This document shows, piece by piece, positions 14,723-25,305 of a stretch of 64,000 nucleotides of DNA. A program made the translations under genes and the position numbers. Numbering within the stretch: position 1 is the first letter of the stretch; every line of letters starts with the position of its first letter. Source of the DNA: Actinoplanes sichuanensis (GTDB lineage Bacteria > Actinomycetota > Actinomycetes > Mycobacteriales > Micromonosporaceae); contig NZ_AP028461.1 in NCBI RefSeq assembly GCF_033097365.1, positions 8,804,001-8,868,000 on the forward strand, in the 5' to 3' direction. Below the pieces are notes generated by a model. The model was given only the letters and a program-made list of their open reading frames with translations, was not told where the DNA came from and did no database searches.

Positions 14723-14951
14723 GTCATCACCTGCCGCCGCCCACCGCGTCACATCGACGTTGCCGCCGCCCTCTCCCCCGGTTGCATCGTCGTGAACTCC
14801 TGGCCAGAGCCCTGCCGCCGGAGTTTCGCCGCCGTAAAACATCGGCAAACGCCGATGGAATGATGGGATCGGGAGGTACCGCGAAGCACTCAAAGAAGTG
14901 ACGATTGTCGATGTCCGGGTTCATCCCCCACCGAACATCGGGAGTCCGAAC

Positions 14952-15371
14952 ATGATCACCCGCATCGGCCGGTTCTTCTCCGGCCTGGCCCTGGTCCTGG
15001 CCCTCTCCGGGACCGCCCTCATCGCCCCCGCGGTCGTGTCACCGACGTCGACCGACGCGGCTCAGGCGGCCGTCTACAGCACCTGCACGATCAGTCGCTG
15101 TTCGGCCGCGCGTACCGCTTTCACCGGCTGGCAGTCCCTCGGCTGGCCCACGTCGGCCGGCTGGTACTCCTGGCCCTACGGCAACTACAACTACACCGGC
15201 GGCCAGTTCTACAACCGCGAGGGCCAGCTCCCCACCGCCACATACAGCGAATACGACGTCTACTCCCGCGCCCGAGGCGCTTCCCGCGACGCCTACCGCA
15301 TCGTGGTCAACCGCAGCACCCGGGTCGCCTACTTCACCCCCGACCACTACGTGACCTTCTACAAGCTTTAA
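14952..15371 (+). CDS. Secreted guanyl-specific ribonuclease, Sa/T1/N1 family
   Basis: 139 residues. A Sec signal peptide (ITRIGRFF, a hydrophobic core, then a likely cut near DAAQA, about residue 39) precedes a mature domain of about 100 residues. It matches RNase Sa in order: FYNREGQLP, YSEYDV (catalytic Glu100), DAYRIV (Arg116) and FTPDHYVTF (catalytic His132). The cleaved substrate would be extracellular RNA, 3' of guanine. The ATG at 14952 gives a proper signal peptide; a GTG 18 codons earlier does not. No barstar-like inhibitor gene is adjacent. The two Cys (45 and 50) are close together, unlike the terminal disulfide of RNase Sa. Confidence 0.85.
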   Translation: MITRIGRFFSGLALVLALSGTALIAPAVVSPTSTDAAQAAVYSTCTISRCSAARTAFTGWQSLGWPTSAGWYSWPYGNYNYTGGQFYNREGQLPTATYSEYDVYSRARGASRDAYRIVVNRSTRVAYFTPDHYVTFYKL

Positions 15372-15420: not shown

Positions 15421-15597
15421 TTGCGTTTGTGGCTGTTACCGCATGGCTGCCCGTTCCCCGCAACCAACCGGCAACCGCATAACACCGCCGCTGATCTAAG
15501 GCAGCGAAATCCTGAAAGTCCCGCGAAAAACCGTCCCCCGAACCATCAGCAGGCCCCCTCCCCGACCGAAACAACTGGCGCAAGCAACGAGCACCCG

Positions 15598-15677
15598 CTC
15601 GGCCGACAAACGCAAACCCGTCGCAAGCCGGGGACGCAAAGCCACAGGGCCCACGAGGCCGGCTGGGCTACCGACCA
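15598..15677 (+). promoter_or_regulatory. Cyclic-di-GMP-I (GEMM) riboswitch
   Basis: The aptamer core is nearly letter-perfect: GCAAACC, a short stem closed by a GCAA tetraloop, then GGGACGCAAAGCC, a GGGCC-cacga-GGCC stem, and GGCTGGGCTACCGA on the 3' side. The GCAAACC-to-GGGACGCAAAGCC spacing equals that of the well-studied Vibrio Vc2 aptamer. The Shine-Dalgarno AAGGGGAG begins right after the 3' element, 16 bases before the ATG at 15693, which suggests control of translation initiation. On or off behaviour cannot be read from the sequence. Confidence 0.92.
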
Positions 15678-15692
15678 AGGGGAGACACACAT

Positions 15693-16103
15693 ATGCGCAA
15701 CATGATCCAGCTGCTGGGCGGCGTCGCCGTCGCCGGCGCCGTCGCCGCCGGTTCCACCGCCTTCACCGCTTCAGGCCTTAGTGGGGCGCCTGCGTCCACC
15801 TTCGTCGGCGGAAAGGCTTCGCTCGGCGTCAAGGGTGCGGTCATGTCCTCCTTTGCATTTGACTTCGACGGCTCCGACCCGAACAAGATCACCGGCCTGC
15901 ACTTCAACCTCATGGACGACGCCGGCGCTGCCCTGTCAACGAGCCCGCAGCCCACGGTCGTGGTCACGGTCACGGGTGATGTAACCAACGCCACCGATGC
16001 CACGCCCACTTGCGTTCGCACCACCAACACGTGGCAGTGCAATGCCGATGGCAGCAGCGCCTACTTCACGGCGCTTACCAACGTCGCCGTTCAGGTTTCA
16101 TGA
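15693..16103 (+). CDS. Small secreted protein with SipW-type signal peptide, under c-di-GMP riboswitch control
   Basis: 136 residues. The N-terminus (MRNMIQLLGG then VAVAGAVAAGSTAFTASG) has the GGxAVAGxxxAGxxAFTA look of signal peptides processed by SipW/archaeal-type signal peptidases. The mature part (about 105 residues) is rich in Thr, Val, Ser and Ala with alternating hydrophobic residues, consistent with a beta-sandwich, and has two Cys (107 and 116) that may bond. TasA and camelysin, the known SipW substrates, are of this general kind, but I cannot show homology. The SD AAGGGGAG lies next to the riboswitch. The next gene is an S26B signal peptidase, so this is its likely substrate. Confidence 0.8.
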   Translation: MRNMIQLLGGVAVAGAVAAGSTAFTASGLSGAPASTFVGGKASLGVKGAVMSSFAFDFDGSDPNKITGLHFNLMDDAGAALSTSPQPTVVVTVTGDVTNATDATPTCVRTTNTWQCNADGSSAYFTALTNVAVQVS

Positions 16104-16126
16104 GAGGCTGAATAACGAGCCTCGGT

Positions 16127-16155
16127 TCGGGTGGGTCTCGTCGAGACCCACCCGA
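16127..16155 (+). terminator. Intercistronic hairpin between secreted protein and signal peptidase genes
   Basis: TCGGGTGGGTCTCG, one base, CGAGACCCACCCGA: a perfect 14-base inverted repeat (11 pairs once a loop is allowed), without a T tract. It may terminate part of the transcripts and keep peptidase levels below substrate levels, or protect the upstream mRNA. Confidence 0.55.
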
Positions 16156-16204
16156 CTCATCGTTTGACGGAGTCAACATTCGCCCGTCGATTCGTCGTCT
16201 AGTC

Positions 16205-19198
16205 ATGGCCGCCGTCCTTGCGACGGCGGCCATCGGTGCGTGGGGCATCAAAACTGAACAACTGTCATATGTCGTAACCCACGGCATCAGCATGCAACCC
16301 ACGTACCACGCTGGCGATCTCGTAATCCTCCTCAAGTTCGATTCATACGAGGTGGGACAGATTGCCGCATACGATGGCACGGACGGCGTAGAAGTCTTGC
16401 ACCGGATCATCGGCGGCAGTGCCGATACTGGGTTTGTCTTGCAAGGGGACAACAACAAGTCGATCGACCATGCCCAGCCCAAGTCCGATGAATTGATCGG
16501 ACGTGCCGTCCTGCATATCCCCAAGGCTGGCACCTGGATCCAGCCCCTGCTCAGTCCTACCGGGCTGGGGATGCTCGGCTTCTTGTTCGTCAGTGGTGGA
16601 GCGGCCCGCGCCAAGTCGAGGCGCGACATACTGCGTGGTCGCAGCAGGAAGAGAGTGAAGGGCATGTCTGGCGGAGGCGGCTCTTGGGCAACCGCAGCGG
16701 CCGTGTTCAAGGCGGTCAGCCGTCTACACCCCGCCCTTCGAGTGTTAGCCGCAGTCACCGTTGTGTGTGGCGTCCTAGGCCTCGCACTCGGCTCACTTGG
16801 ATGGATTAAGCCGGTCACCGAGATCGTTACGGGAACTGGAAGACCCGGCGAATCGATGACCTTCGCCTACTCTGCCGAAGTACCGCACTCTGCGGCCTAC
16901 GACGGAACGACCGTCTACTCACCGGATCCGGTATTTCGGAAACTTGCCGGGCTGATCGATCTCCACCTGAACTATCGGGGAGAGGCAGGCCGGATCGAGG
17001 TTACCGGTCGCCTCGCGGCCCAAAACGGCTGGCACAAGACCCTTCAGTTGTCCCAGCCACAACAGTTCATGACTGACCGATATACCGGGACGGTTCAAAT
17101 CAATCTTGAAGCCATCGATCAGCGCATTGCAGCCGCCGGCACGGCGATCGGGGCAGATATGACCGGAACTACCCTCGCGATCACCGCTCGCGTAGAGCAC
17201 AACGACGGTACCGTCTTCGAGCCGCAGATCTCCCTGAACGTTTCTCCGCTTCTCCTCACGCTCACCAGCGGCCCACAGTCACTAGTGGTGGATCAATCGA
17301 GCGCCTCGGTAGGCAGCAGGATTCAGGATCGTCAGATCGGCGCCTTCGGCTACGACCTGGTCACCGCGGCCTCTGCTCGGAAGTATGCCGTCTATCTGAT
17401 CCTCGCTGCATTGGCCGGAGCCGGAATCGTGGCATGGATGGCGCTGGGGCACGTGCCCTTGCGAACTCGCACCCAGATCCAGCGCCGCTACCCACACCTG
17501 ATCGTTCCGGTGGAGCCGATGGCCAGCCCTCCTGGTAAGCCTGTCGTCGTTGTCGATACCTTCCCGGCGCTGGTGAAGCTTGCTGAGAAATACGGGCAAC
17601 TGATCCTCACCTGGACTCGGCCTGATGGTGCGGACGACTTCGTGGTTCGGGATGAAGGCATCCTCTACCGGTATCGGATCGAGCCGAACTTGGTTCCGGT
17701 CGTCCCGGCGAAGGTTGAGAGGCAGCCGGCCGCCTCCTCTCCCTCGGGGCGGGTCGCCCCCGGGGCCGGGACTGTACCGCCTCTGCAACTGCCGCCGGTT
17801 CCCGAGACGCCACCAGAATTGCAAGCCGATCTGCGGGAAGCCGAAGACCCTGCCAGGCTCGAAGGCGCCCCGGTGAACAAGACGGCGCCCCGCAAACGCG
17901 CCTCTCGTACCGCAGCCGCCAAGGCCGCCGCGAAGACGACCGCCACGAAGGCTGCCCCCACGAAACGCGCTCCGGCGAAAGCCCCCGCGAAACGCACCCG
18001 CGCACAGGCGAAGACCCCCAGCGCTCCCGCTCCCGAGGCAGCCATGACGGCGGCATCCGAAATCGCGTTCTCCCCCGACGAGCCGACGCAATCGGCCTTC
18101 GACGCCGGCGGTCTCGAAGCAGGTGGGCCGGATGTGACCACCGATGCCGCCCAGAGTCCCGGGACCGGCGTTACCGCCGAGGCCATTGTCGAAGCGATGG
18201 ATCTGCAGCCGGAACGGGTTCCGACGGACGAAGCCTCCGCCAGCACTCCCCTGCCTGGGTCGACCACTGACAAATCCGGCACCAGTCTGGCCGCCGAACC
18301 CGAACTGAAGACGTCGCCAGAATCTACGTCCGATTCCGGGCAGCCGGAACAGGACCCGGCGGCGCTCGCCATCCCACCGGAAACGCACATACCCGAGGAC
18401 ACATCGTCCGCGCACCCGGAAGGACTAAAAGTCGAGGCGGATTTACTCCCCTTCGAGCGGGGCCAGGTTACGGCCGGGACCGAGGACCCGGACCGAGATG
18501 CGGCCGAAACGGAGCACCCCGTCGCTCAGGCGAAGGTGATCACCCCCTCACCGGGCGCGGAAGCCGCAGAACCAGTCGGCCACGCCGCCAAGCCCGAACA
18601 TTCAACGACGGGTCCGAAGGCCCAGACCGCCGCGCCCGGACAGTCAACGGTAGAACCAGATGCCACCGCCCTCGGGCCCGGACGACCAACGACCGAATCC
18701 GAAAGCACTGTGGCCGAGCCTGCGCCGACCGAACCCGCGGGTCCAGAGGGCATCGAACCCGAACCCGCTCCGGAAGCGATCCGGCTAGAACCGTCGGCTA
18801 TGACCGAAACCACCCAGGCGGAATCCACCACAGCACCGGAGACGGCCCGGCCCGAGGCGACGGATTCCCGGCCTTCGCGGAGTCAGCAGCGGACCAGCCG
18901 CCGAAAGGGCCGCTCGCGTCGCTCCCCGCAGCCGGCCATGGACGAGCCACCCACCGCAGACCGACCCGCGTCGGCGGACGAGCCCGTCGAGCAACCGACC
19001 GCAGTAATTCCCGACGCCCCGGCCAACGAGGCGCGCGAGGCAATGAAGGACCTGGCCGACCGCAACCGCCCCATCACCACGCCAGAGCCGGAACCCGAGG
19101 CTCAGCCCGAGCCGAAGCGCGAACCCATCTACGACTTCCTGCCGGCGGCGAAGCGCGCCCCGAGCCCTCCAGACCCTGAAGACGAGCCGGAAGCTTGA
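16205..19198 (+). CDS. Archaeal/SipW-type signal peptidase I (S26B) fused to DUF5305-like ectodomain and long disordered tail
   Basis: 997 residues. A membrane segment (1-15) is followed by the S26 catalytic domain: THGISMQPTYHAGD with Ser29, EVLHRIIGG with His66 in place of the bacterial Lys, and LQGDNN with Asp82. This is the Ser/His/Asp type of SipW and archaeal enzymes. Membrane segments lie at about 119-133, 177-200 and 393-413. The 200-392 ectodomain and the adjoining YPHLIVPV region to about 490 resemble archaeal DUF5305, a weak call. Residues 559-602 are Lys/Ala-rich, like histone-H1 tails, and 610-997 are Glu/Pro/Ala-rich. No SD precedes the ATG at 16205. The frame stays open upstream, where GGAG sits five bases before an ATT at 16178 that would give a basic N-terminus (RPSIRRLV). 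Confidence 0.82.
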   Translation: MAAVLATAAIGAWGIKTEQLSYVVTHGISMQPTYHAGDLVILLKFDSYEVGQIAAYDGTDGVEVLHRIIGGSADTGFVLQGDNNKSIDHAQPKSDELIGRAVLHIPKAGTWIQPLLSPTGLGMLGFLFVSGGAARAKSRRDILRGRSRKRVKGMSGGGGSWATAAAVFKAVSRLHPALRVLAAVTVVCGVLGLALGSLGWIKPVTEIVTGTGRPGESMTFAYSAEVPHSAAYDGTTVYSPDPVFRKLAGLIDLHLNYRGEAGRIEVTGRLAAQNGWHKTLQLSQPQQFMTDRYTGTVQINLEAIDQRIAAAGTAIGADMTGTTLAITARVEHNDGTVFEPQISLNVSPLLLTLTSGPQSLVVDQSSASVGSRIQDRQIGAFGYDLVTAASARKYAVYLILAALAGAGIVAWMALGHVPLRTRTQIQRRYPHLIVPVEPMASPPGKPVVVVDTFPALVKLAEKYGQLILTWTRPDGADDFVVRDEGILYRYRIEPNLVPVVPAKVERQPAASSPSGRVAPGAGTVPPLQLPPVPETPPELQADLREAEDPARLEGAPVNKTAPRKRASRTAAAKAAAKTTATKAAPTKRAPAKAPAKRTRAQAKTPSAPAPEAAMTAASEIAFSPDEPTQSAFDAGGLEAGGPDVTTDAAQSPGTGVTAEAIVEAMDLQPERVPTDEASASTPLPGSTTDKSGTSLAAEPELKTSPESTSDSGQPEQDPAALAIPPETHIPEDTSSAHPEGLKVEADLLPFERGQVTAGTEDPDRDAAETEHPVAQAKVITPSPGAEAAEPVGHAAKPEHSTTGPKAQTAAPGQSTVEPDATALGPGRPTTESESTVAEPAPTEPAGPEGIEPEPAPEAIRLEPSAMTETTQAESTTAPETARPEATDSRPSRSQQRTSRRKGRSRRSPQPAMDEPPTADRPASADEPVEQPTAVIPDAPANEAREAMKDLADRNRPITTPEPEPEAQPEPKREPIYDFLPAAKRAPSPPDPEDEPEA

Positions 19199-19445: not shown

Positions 19446-21044
<1,599 letters not shown>

Positions 21045-21808
21045 CTAGATGGACCACCCGAAGTGGTCCAGCGGGCCCGGCCCGGCGCCGAGCCGCCAGG
21101 AGCTGCCGCCGCGCAGCCCCCGGTTGACGTAATCCTTGGCCGCCGCCACCGCGTCCGGCACCTGGTCACCGGCCGCCAGCCGGACCGCGATCGCGGACGA
21201 GAACGTGCACCCCGAGCCATGGTTGTTTCCGGTCACGACCGGCTCGCCGCGCAACAGCGTCGTCTCCCCCGCGACATGCAGGACGTCCAGCGCCAGCTCA
21301 CTTCCGGTCACCACGACGGCGCGCGGCCCGAGGGCCGCCAGCTCGGCCGCCGCCGAGATCATCTCCTCGGTGGTCTCCACTCGCCGCCCCAGGAGGGCGC
21401 CGGCTTCGTGCCGGTTCGGAGTCAACACGCAGGGGTACGCCGTAAGCACCCCGACAACCGCAGCCTCCCCCAGCCGGCTGCCCGCGGTGGCCACCAGAAC
21501 CGGGTCGACGACCAGGTTGGGCAGATCGTCCACACGCGACGCGATCAGCTTCGCCACCGCCGGATCCGAGATCATCCCGACCTTGACCGCGGCCACCGGC
21601 AGATCCGACAGCACGGCATCAAGCTGAGCAGCGACAACATCGACGGGTACGGGGTGAATGGCCGTGACGCCGAGCGTGTTCTGCGCCGTGATGGCCGTGA
21701 TCACCGACGTCCCGAACGCCCCGAGCGCGGCAAACGTCTTCAGGTCCGCCTGAATCCCGGCCCCGCCCCCGGAGTCCGACCCGGCAATCGTCAACACCAC
21801 CGGAGGAG

Positions 21809-21812
<4 letters not shown>
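21045..21812 (-). CDS. thiD: Hydroxymethylpyrimidine/phosphomethylpyrimidine kinase
   Basis: 255 residues. Phosphorylates HMP and HMP-P to HMP-PP, the pyrimidine substrate of ThiE. The ribokinase-fold pattern is clear: LTIAGSDSGGGAGIQADLKT at the start, VDPVLVATAGSRL, the LTPNRHEA segment and NNHGSGCTFSSAIA, which holds the catalytic Asp/Gly anion-hole region. The start is GTG at 21812, overlapping the preceding gene's stop as GTGA. The open frame continues 67 codons upstream but that part lies over the previous gene. Confidence 0.95.
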
Positions 21813-23409
<1,597 letters not shown>

Positions 23410-24585: not shown

Positions 24586-25166
24586 GGCAGGACCGCCAGG
24601 AATTCCGCGACCGCCCCCTTCGGATCCGCCGCGAAGGCGGAGACAGCCGCGACCCCGTGCACCGCGAGCTGCGGCACCCGTTCCGCGGTGATACCGCCGA
24701 TCGCCAGAACCGGAGTGCCCGGCACCGCGTCGGCGACGGCCGCGATCGCGGCCGGCCCGAGTGGTGGCGGCAGTCCGTCCTTAGTGGACGTGGGGAAGGC
24801 CGGTCCGACGCCGAGATAGCTCGCCCCGGCGTCGACGGCGGCTCGCGCCGCTCGGGGGTCACGGCAGGTCGCGCCGACGATCGCGGTCGGGCCGAGGACG
24901 CGGCGTCCGGCGGACACCGGCAGGTCGTCGGCCCCGAGGTGTACGCCGTCCGCCTGAGCCGCGAGGGCGACCCCGACCCGGTCGTTGACCAGCACGATCG
25001 TGCCGGCCGGTCGGCACACCGCAATCGCGGCGCAGGTCAACGCGTACGCCGAAGCGTCGTTGCTCTTGACTCTGATCTGGACGGCCACGTCGGGAAGCCC
25101 GGCGACACCGCGAACAACGTCGATGTCATCGGTTATGACGTGGATACGGGGGAAGGATGCGCCCAT
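24582..25166 (-). CDS. thiE: Thiamine-phosphate synthase
   Basis: 194 residues. Couples HMP-PP and thiazole phosphate to thiamin phosphate. The active-site residues are present: Gln and Lys in VQIRVKS, Asn-Asp in VNDRVGVALAAQADGVHLG, PAFPTSTKDG, and the phosphate-binding AIGGI. It is slightly short for the family. It starts 8 bases after the TPP riboswitch, whose 3' end carries the SD, and is the first gene of the operon. Confidence 0.93.
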   Translation of the reverse strand: MGASFPRIHVITDDIDVVRGVAGLPDVAVQIRVKSNDASAYALTCAAIAVCRPAGTIVLVNDRVGVALAAQADGVHLGADDLPVSAGRRVLGPTAIVGATCRDPRAARAAVDAGASYLGVGPAFPTSTKDGLPPPLGPAAIAAVADAVPGTPVLAIGGITAERVPQLAVHGVAAVSAFAADPKGAVAEFLAVLP

Positions 25167-25174
25167 GGAGAACT

Positions 25175-25262
25175 CCTCCCTGCGCCGGCATTACCCGGAT
25201 CAGGTTCGACGGTCGGGGGCCGCATCAGCCCCCCTCTCAGCCCGGTGCCCGGACTCCCGTGG
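25175..25262 (-). promoter_or_regulatory. TPP riboswitch (THI element)
   Basis: On the minus strand the element reads ACGGGAGTCCGG, then GGGCTGAGAGG (pyrimidine-binding CUGAGA), a GC-rich P3 stem, and ACCTGATCCGGGTAATGCC (pyrophosphate side). It ends in GCGCAGGGAGGAG. The last bases are the thiE Shine-Dalgarno, so ligand binding probably blocks ribosome access rather than causing termination; no U-tract hairpin lies between the aptamer and thiE. Confidence 0.95.
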
Positions 25263-25305
25263 GTTGTGTCTGTAACCGGACCCTAACCGGTCCGTGACGA
25301 GAAAA

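What the first reader, a model, noticed from the sequence alone, without database searches (positions are those of the whole stretch)
15598..19198. A c-di-GMP riboswitch controls a SipW-type secreted protein and its own fused signal peptidase
The sequence shows a near-perfect GEMM-I aptamer, then a 136-residue protein with a SipW-type signal peptide, then a signal peptidase of the Ser/His type. In Bacillus, SipW matures TasA, a biofilm fibre protein, and c-di-GMP commonly controls matrix production. I infer a compact, second-messenger-controlled matrix or surface-fibre locus in an actinomycete. The two genes also look less GC-rich at third codon positions than their neighbours by eye, which hints at acquisition.
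Basis: partly seen in the sequence, partly recalled or inferred. Interest (0 to 1): 0.85.

Follow-up and report, generated by a model that had tools for sequence, protein, structure and literature searches.

The report
Riboswitch-controlled secreted fibre-like protein module
In Actinoplanes soil bacteria, an RNA sensor for the signalling molecule c-di-GMP sits in front of a small secreted protein and the enzyme that probably cuts its export tag; a similar arrangement recurs in other bacteria, in two cases with an unrelated sensor for the same signal.

Summary
Window 15601-15675 is a c-di-GMP-I riboswitch (52.7 bits, cut-off 35), followed by a 136-aa exported protein and a 997-aa Ser/His signal peptidase fused to DUF5305. 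By its nearest named relatives the genome is an Actinoplanes. Of 44 strong peptidase hits in 150 related genomes, 28 have the aptamer 522-590 bp upstream. The pair recurs in Arthrobacter, Frankiales, Acidimicrobiia and Chloroflexi. In two distant loci an unrelated class, c-di-GMP-II, precedes the peptidase, and one of these peptidases ends in an HD domain. This supports c-di-GMP control independently. The small protein is a new family: predicted beta-sandwich, two conserved cysteines; the window copy matches no Pfam or NCBIfam model. I infer a c-di-GMP-gated secretion and assembly module that works like SipW-TasA but is not shown to belong to it. Fibre formation is untested and the ON/OFF sense undecided. 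Recent acquisition is not supported: 18 of 34 other Actinoplanes loci examined hold the pair at the same place beside thiC.

The parts
15545..15570 (+). promoter-like element: ATCA-N15-GACCGAA; in relatives CTTA/CTCA-N15-GACCGAA or close to it (resembles FliA/WhiG-type promoters)
   Evidence: read from the sequence; motif CTYA-N14..18-DCCGAW found in 16 of 18 loci at the thiC site and 2 of 16 other Actinoplanes loci, mean 0.4 of 34 in 50 shuffles; the window's own -35 is degenerate and it is one of the misses
15588..15601 (+). short hairpin CGAGC-ACCC-GCUCG just upstream of the aptamer, overlapping its possible P1 strand
   Evidence: sequence and leader alignment; role inferred only
15601..15675 (+). 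c-di-GMP-I (GEMM-I) riboswitch aptamer
   Evidence: Rfam RF01051 52.7 bits; 40 linked aptamers align with changes on both sides in 8 of 17 pairs
15677..15684 (+). ribosome-binding site AAGGGGAG directly after the aptamer
   Evidence: sequence; AGGGGA is the leader consensus of the 17 loci aligned
15693..16103 (+). gene 1: 136-aa secreted protein, SipW-like signal peptide (A23-F24-T25), predicted 7-strand beta-sandwich (residues 43-135), C107 and C116 conserved
15762..15812 (+). residues 24-40 of gene 1: conserved, low-confidence N-terminal arm of the presumed mature protein; candidate donor strand
   Evidence: mean column entropy 1.50 against 2.3-2.4 for residues 52-136; pLDDT block means 46 and 56 for residues 21-40; function inferred
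16128..16154 (+). intergenic hairpin CGGGTGGGTCTC-GTC-GAGACCCACCCG between gene 1 and gene 2; possible attenuator or mRNA stabiliser
   Evidence: folding z -4.74 in the window; 19 of 35 loci with z below -2
16205..19198 (+). gene 2: 997-aa membrane signal peptidase fused to DUF5305 and a long tail
16250..16552 (+). S26 peptidase domain of gene 2 (about residues 16-116), Ser29 and His66
   Evidence: TIGR02228 and Sec11A profile matches, conservation
16817..17689 (+). DUF5305 region of gene 2: beta-rich domain (about 205-387), second TM helix (388-414), small conserved domain (420-495)
   Evidence: PF17231 28.3 bits, cut-off 29, residues 276-490; model m310a36fcde42
17690..19195 (+). low-complexity Ala/Pro/Lys/Glu-rich tail of gene 2 (residues 496-997), variable in relatives
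   Evidence: translation; gene 2 open frame 547-1201 aa among the aptamer-linked Actinoplanes rows

Best explanation
A c-di-GMP-gated secretion and assembly module. Steps shown by sequence: a c-di-GMP aptamer abuts the ribosome-binding site of gene 1; gene 1 encodes a small exported protein; gene 2 encodes a membrane Ser/His signal peptidase carrying DUF5305. Steps inferred: c-di-GMP binding changes translation of gene 1 (more likely ON, about 60 to 40, by analogy with other surface proteins, recalled); gene 2 removes the unusual signal peptide of gene 1; the freed N-terminal arm (from about Phe24) then lets the Ig-like subunits assemble outside the cell, probably as a fibre, with DUF5305 holding or starting the assembly. 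In Actinoplanes a FliA/WhiG-like promoter may add timing to sporangium or zoospore stages.
For: Riboswitch call, and key G retained in 40 of 40 linked aptamers. Linkage: aptamer 522-590 bp upstream of 28 of 44 strong gene 2 hits. Gene 1 homologue found upstream by a pattern script in 37 of the 45 of these loci that I gave it. The Chloroflexi gene 2 (L190) ends in an HD domain, PF13487 117.5 bits. The signal peptide core is the most conserved part of gene 1 (entropy 0.76 for residues 8-23), as expected for a dedicated peptidase. The top PDB fold hit of gene 2 is S. pyogenes SipA, whose title calls it a signal peptidase homologue essential for pilus polymerisation, though only at E 1.5e-3. In Clostridium perfringens SipW is needed for secretion and polymerisation of BsaA (PMC7395162, passages; [quoted passage not shown]).
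Confidence: 0.55

Rival explanations
1. Same regulation and processing, but gene 1 is a monomeric surface or matrix protein (coat, adhesin tip or sporangium-matrix component) and does not form fibres.
For: Gene 1 is small and only weakly like known filament subunits in fold; polymerisation could not be tested.
Against: Well conserved N-terminal arm next to the presumed cleavage site and the linked SipW-like peptidase fit an assembling subunit.
Confidence: 0.27
2. The riboswitch is an OFF switch: c-di-GMP stops translation of gene 1, so the protein is made when c-di-GMP is low, for example in motile zoospores.
For: FliA/WhiG-like promoter motif in relatives; PMC8325347 (passages) says zoospore flagella and type IV pili of A. 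missouriensis use WhiG-like flagellar sigma factors. Nine of 39 leaders lose ribosome-site accessibility in the bound model.
Against: 13 of 39 gain accessibility; window unchanged. Adhesive surface proteins are usually induced by c-di-GMP (recalled).
Confidence: 0.35
3. The aptamer is a relic and the gene pair is controlled by its promoter alone.
For: Aptamer lost or diverged in several lineages: absent in the A. lutulentus locus that keeps promoter element, ribosome site and pair, and altered in Arthrobacter loci L148, L153, L154, L156, L173.
Against: Aptamer kept in 18 of 19 loci at the thiC site, own included; changes on both sides in 8 of 17 pairs; c-di-GMP-II in its place in two loci.
Confidence: 0.06
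4. Gene 1 is a diffusible protein with another task (antimicrobial, ligand carrier of neocarzinostatin type) and only its export uses gene 2.
For: One source names a family member 'Neocarzinostatin family protein' (P0013).
Against: The window protein has no Pfam hit, and that family is not among the 25 families shown (of 48) for 80 members; the one gene 1 match in the own genome is the one beside gene 2.
Confidence: 0.07

Closest known systems
tapA-sipW-tasA operon of Bacillus subtilis
   Same: Signal peptidase encoded beside a small secreted beta-sandwich protein; aromatic residue near the cleavage site (TasA: abstract of PMC10269814 in listing); N-terminal arm precedes the sandwich
   Different: No sequence match of the window's gene 1 to TasA or camelysin models; no TapA seen; peptidase here is fused to DUF5305; a riboswitch here, whereas PMC9674648 (passage) names SinR for the Bacillus operon
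sipW-bsaA operon of Clostridium perfringens (PMC7395162, passages)
   Same: Peptidase and polymerising exported protein in one operon, with a predicted terminator behind the subunit gene there and an intergenic hairpin here
   Different: Needs a two-component system for expression; no sequence relation found or sought beyond the family searches
c-di-GMP-I and c-di-GMP-II riboswitches (RF01051, RF03167, RF03168, RF03169)
   Same: Aptamers above Rfam cut-off upstream of the pair or of gene 2
   Different: No paper tying either class to this gene pair came up in the searches (openly licensed papers only; most listings not opened)
Sec11/archaeal signal peptidase (TIGR02228, Sec11A 7p2p)
   Same: S26 family, Ser/His, significant profile match
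   Different: Second TM, DUF5305 and long tail; window protein below the TIGR02228 cut-off
Streptococcus pyogenes SipA (4n31)
   Same: Top fold match of gene 2; a peptidase homologue tied to pilus assembly (title)
   Different: Weak match (E 1.5e-3, TM 0.54 by target length), DUF5305 not covered

Membership tests
c-di-GMP-I riboswitch (RF01051) | covariance-model score above the curated cut-off over the whole model | tested here: met
   52.7 bits against 35, positions 1-87
c-di-GMP-I riboswitch (RF01051) | ligand-contact nucleotides kept (G20, A47, C92 of Vc2; numbering recalled and mapped by me) | tested here: met
   the G mapped to G20 is 40 of 40; the positions mapped to A47 and C92 are listed as nearly invariant
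c-di-GMP-I riboswitch (RF01051) | binds c-di-GMP and alters expression | not testable with these tools
   needs in-line probing and a reporter
SipW/Sec11/archaeal-type signal peptidase | Ser nucleophile with His in place of the bacterial Lys | tested here: met
   S29 55 of 56 with one gap, H66 56 of 56, D82 and D88 56 of 56
SipW/Sec11/archaeal-type signal peptidase | score above the SipW (NF046067) or archaeal (TIGR02228) curated cut-off | tested here: not met
   window protein 20.2 vs 190 and 42.3 vs 51.85; 56 of 56 relatives match TIGR02228 at E 0.01 or better
DUF5305 (PF17231) | score above gathering cut-off | tested here: inconclusive
   window 28.3 vs 29; relatives L190 46.1 and L198 47.0 pass
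TasA/camelysin matrix fibres | sequence profile match of the subunit | tested here: not met
   window protein: no family at E 1 or better in Pfam or NCBIfam. For 80 relatives the tables show 25 of 48 and 25 of 32 families, none of this kind
TasA/camelysin matrix fibres | beta-sandwich (jelly-roll) subunit | tested here: inconclusive
   7-strand sandwich predicted; fold searches gave only middling matches
TasA/camelysin matrix fibres | SipW-like peptidase encoded beside the subunit | tested here: met
TasA/camelysin matrix fibres | forms extracellular fibres by donor-strand exchange | not testable with these tools
   needs protein or cells

The most novel reading that the evidence does not exclude
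A widespread, previously undescribed extracellular filament system, made of a new family of Ig-like subunits and a signal peptidase-DUF5305 assembly protein, is switched by c-di-GMP through riboswitches of two unrelated classes recruited independently, with a c-di-GMP-type HD domain built into the peptidase in a Chloroflexi lineage; in Actinoplanes it is tied to the sporangium and zoospore cycle by a flagellar-type promoter.
Probability: 0.3. Interest if true: 0.82.

Novelty: new variant of a known kind. Interest (0 to 1): 0.64.

Why it matters
This genome has 118 GGDEF matches but only two GEMM-I riboswitches were detected, and GEMM-I occurs in 110 of 246 genomes drawn across the phylum, so what these switches control matters widely. 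This locus names one target with a dedicated exported protein and its likely maturation enzyme, and shows the link to c-di-GMP arising with two different aptamer classes. It makes a direct test possible: does c-di-GMP turn on a protein surface layer or fibre in sporangium-forming actinomycetes? It also gives function hints for DUF5305, on which no paper was found.

Tried and rejected
Recent horizontal acquisition: not supported for this lineage. The pair lies at the same place beside thiC in 18 of 34 other Actinoplanes loci examined; the other 16 lie elsewhere. The low third-position GC is real and shared by some close relatives.

Switch sense from folding: 39 of 40 leaders scored, one without a start codon found; 13 up, 9 down, 17 unchanged. 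The script's ribosome-site choice was poor in some leaders (for example L070, L072, L079, L195). A first fold script also picked some wrong -10 sites. No sense is claimed from either.

FliA promoter check on own flagellin genes: one of two flagellin genes read has CTCA-N17-GCCGAT upstream, the second has no clear -10 (an earlier script read the wrong strand). The Actinoplanes FliA consensus is recalled; the two papers that should hold it are not in the library.

FlgM in the own genome: none. RF01051 at permissive threshold in ten aptamer-less 4.4-kb loci: none.

Phylum-wide sample: gene 2 at E 1e-20 in 12 of 246 genomes, GEMM-I in 110 of 246; linkage could not be counted because the match list was cut.

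Changes after the self-check: synteny is now 18 of 34 (not 18 of 18), aptamer retention 18 of 19 at the thiC site, the overlap of 6 loci between two counts is told, and 'always beside gene 2' was withdrawn.
Full report
What is there. The window lies in a 12.14-Mb single-contig genome. Its nearest named relatives by gene 2 are Actinoplanes species, A. italicus at 75% identity first. Rfam finds two RNA families in the window: a TPP riboswitch at 25160-25270 (-) and a c-di-GMP-I aptamer at 15601-15675 (+), 52.7 bits against a cut-off of 35. The aptamer is followed by AAGGGGAG at 15677-15684 and an ATG at 15693. Gene 1 (15693-16103) encodes 136 aa and matches no Pfam or NCBIfam family. Gene 2 (16205-19198) encodes 997 aa: an S26 signal peptidase, DUF5305, and a long low-complexity tail.

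Gene 2. A profile of 56 relatives matches human Sec11A at E 9.5e-11 and 56 of 56 members match the archaeal-type signal peptidase model at E 0.01 or better. Ser29 is kept in 55 of 56 (one gap), His66 in 56 of 56, Asp82 and Asp88 in 56 of 56. The window protein itself stays below the curated cut-offs of the archaeal and Bacillus SipW models. The predicted structure of residues 1-495 (mean pLDDT 84.1, pTM 0.47) shows an N-terminal helix, the peptidase, a helix at 176-201, a beta-rich domain, a helix at 388-414 and a small terminal domain. Its top fold hit is S. pyogenes SipA, E 1.5e-3; no hit reaches 1e-3.

Gene 1. A profile search gives 413 database proteins at E 1e-3 (7991 candidates scored, 120 listed; those with a name are nearly all 'hypothetical protein'). 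In 80 aligned members Ala23, Thr25, Gly39, Gly40 and Cys107 are kept in 80 of 80, Cys116 in 79 of 80, and residue 24 is Phe in 64 of 80. Mean column entropy is lowest in residues 8-23 of the signal peptide (0.76), then in residues 24-51 (1.50 and 1.39), and highest in the rest (2.3-2.4). Conservation of the export tag above the body fits a dedicated peptidase. The predicted fold is a seven-strand sandwich from residue 43 on, with block means of pLDDT 83-93 over residues 41-136; residues 15-27 are below 50. Foldseek found no PDB match at E 1e-3 or better.

Linkage. RF01051 is found in 70 of 150 related genomes (103 places; strict filters, so a lower bound) and the gene 2 core in 55 of 150 (69 rows). 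Of 44 strong gene 2 rows that I compared, 28 have an aptamer on the same strand 522-590 bp upstream; 25 rows were left out, one partial and 24 weaker. Its leader keeps the promoter-like element and ribosome site but lacks the aptamer. (G066 also has it; its synteny was not tested.) Of the 16 Actinoplanes loci elsewhere in the chromosome 4 have it (G043, G022, G005, G065) and 12 do not. A permissive Rfam search of ten aptamer-less loci found nothing.

Wider occurrence. A scan of named genomes with gene 2 gave 162 relatives, of which 78 loci were kept. In L146-L201 (56 loci) the Rfam cut-off search finds GEMM-I upstream of gene 2 in 18, c-di-GMP-II-GAG upstream in 2 (L190 Chloroflexi, L198 Acidimicrobiia) and a GEMM-I only downstream in L175. 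A signal-peptide pattern found gene 1 upstream in 37 of the 45 of these loci that I gave it; in L190 two copies are present by eye, and in L198 a different small exported protein takes the place. In L190 gene 2 ends in an HD domain (PF13487, 117.5 bits) and in both loci an RTX-repeat protein follows; that this HD domain is of the HD-GYP kind is my reading of its motif. Two unrelated aptamer classes for the same ligand in front of the same peptidase family are hard to explain unless c-di-GMP matters.

Aptamer quality. The forty linked GEMM-I aptamers align with 17 consensus pairs, 8 of them with changes on both sides. The G that I map to Vc2 G20 (numbering recalled) is present in 40 of 40. A model built from these (R1) also finds diverged copies upstream of the pair that the Rfam cut-off search did not list: L156 46 bits, L160 43, L165 35, L154 31, L153 24, L173 and L148 14. 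In L154 and L156 the key G is A and its partner is U. They may be ligand variants or decay.

Mechanism. The aptamer sits directly before the ribosome site, so translational control is likely. A fold comparison with and without a forced aptamer left the sense open: 13 of 39 leaders gain ribosome-site accessibility, 9 lose it, the window does not change. Upstream, a CTYA-N14..18-DCCGAW element occurs in 18 of 34 Actinoplanes leaders (16 of 18 at the thiC site, 2 of 16 elsewhere) against a mean of 0.4 in 50 shuffles; relatedness inflates this. PMC8325347 (passages) gives the flagellar consensus as TAAA and GCCGATAA and says that A. missouriensis zoospore flagella and type IV pili use WhiG-like sigma factors. 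In the window the -35 part is degenerate. Between gene 1 and gene 2 lies a strong hairpin (z -4.74); 19 of 35 loci have z below -2. It could lower gene 2 relative to gene 1, as expected for enzyme and subunit. I infer that c-di-GMP gates production of gene 1 protein, gene 2 cuts its signal peptide, and the subunit assembles outside.

Comparison. The module works like SipW-TasA of Bacillus or SipW-BsaA of Clostridium (PMC9674648 and PMC7395162, passages), but gene 1 is not shown to be homologous to either subunit. Literature searches found no paper on DUF5305 and none with c-di-GMP riboswitch, signal peptidase and Actinobacteria together. For c-di-GMP riboswitch with Actinoplanes two papers were listed, one opened, where the term is only in a reference. 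For SipW with c-di-GMP and riboswitch six were listed, two opened for passages, neither describing such control in what I saw. GEMM with actinobacteria listed four, none opened. The library holds only openly licensed papers.

The other target. The own genome's second detected GEMM-I (C1:11226111; 150 of 274 candidates were scored) precedes a 1111-aa protein with Calx-beta domains (PF03160 87.4 bits). I read 24 GEMM loci, chosen mostly for not being linked to gene 2; 20 of the 21 unlinked ones precede a protein with this kind of N-terminus. So both GEMM-I targets found in this genome look like surface proteins.

Noticed in passing
L190:1859-5411: Chloroflexi MAG: c-di-GMP-II riboswitch, two gene 1 copies by eye, signal peptidase-DUF5305 fused to an HD domain (117.5 bits, PF13487), then an RTX-repeat protein.
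   Followed up: partly
L154:2308-2401 and L156:2359-2452: Arthrobacter sp. H14 has two GEMM-derived leaders in which the nucleotide mapped to G20 is A and its partner is U; possible change of ligand or decay.
   Followed up: partly
   Followed up: partly
L003:6112-9541 (own genome C1:11226111 on): Second GEMM-I in front of a 1111-aa Calx-beta protein, next to a 1930-aa ORF that looks similar by eye; 20 of 21 unlinked GEMM loci read have this kind of target.
   Followed up: partly
window 14898-15371: Secreted barnase-like ribonuclease (PF00545, 41.7 bits) upstream, matched in 16 of the 18 relatives' loci at the thiC site by tblastn.
   Followed up: no
window 25160-25270: TPP riboswitch on the minus strand near thiamine genes (ThiC 19446-21017, HMP-P kinase 21045-22013).
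   Followed up: no
own genome: 118 GGDEF matches in one 12.1-Mb genome but only two GEMM-I riboswitches detected.
   Followed up: no
L175:4620-4707: Arthrobacter mobilis has a GEMM-I downstream of gene 2 rather than upstream.
   Followed up: no
L084, L086, L087, L090, L092 leaders: These Actinoplanes/Paractinoplanes leaders share a conserved aptamer-less stretch between the promoter-like element and the ribosome site that may be a remodelled GEMM or something else.
   Followed up: no
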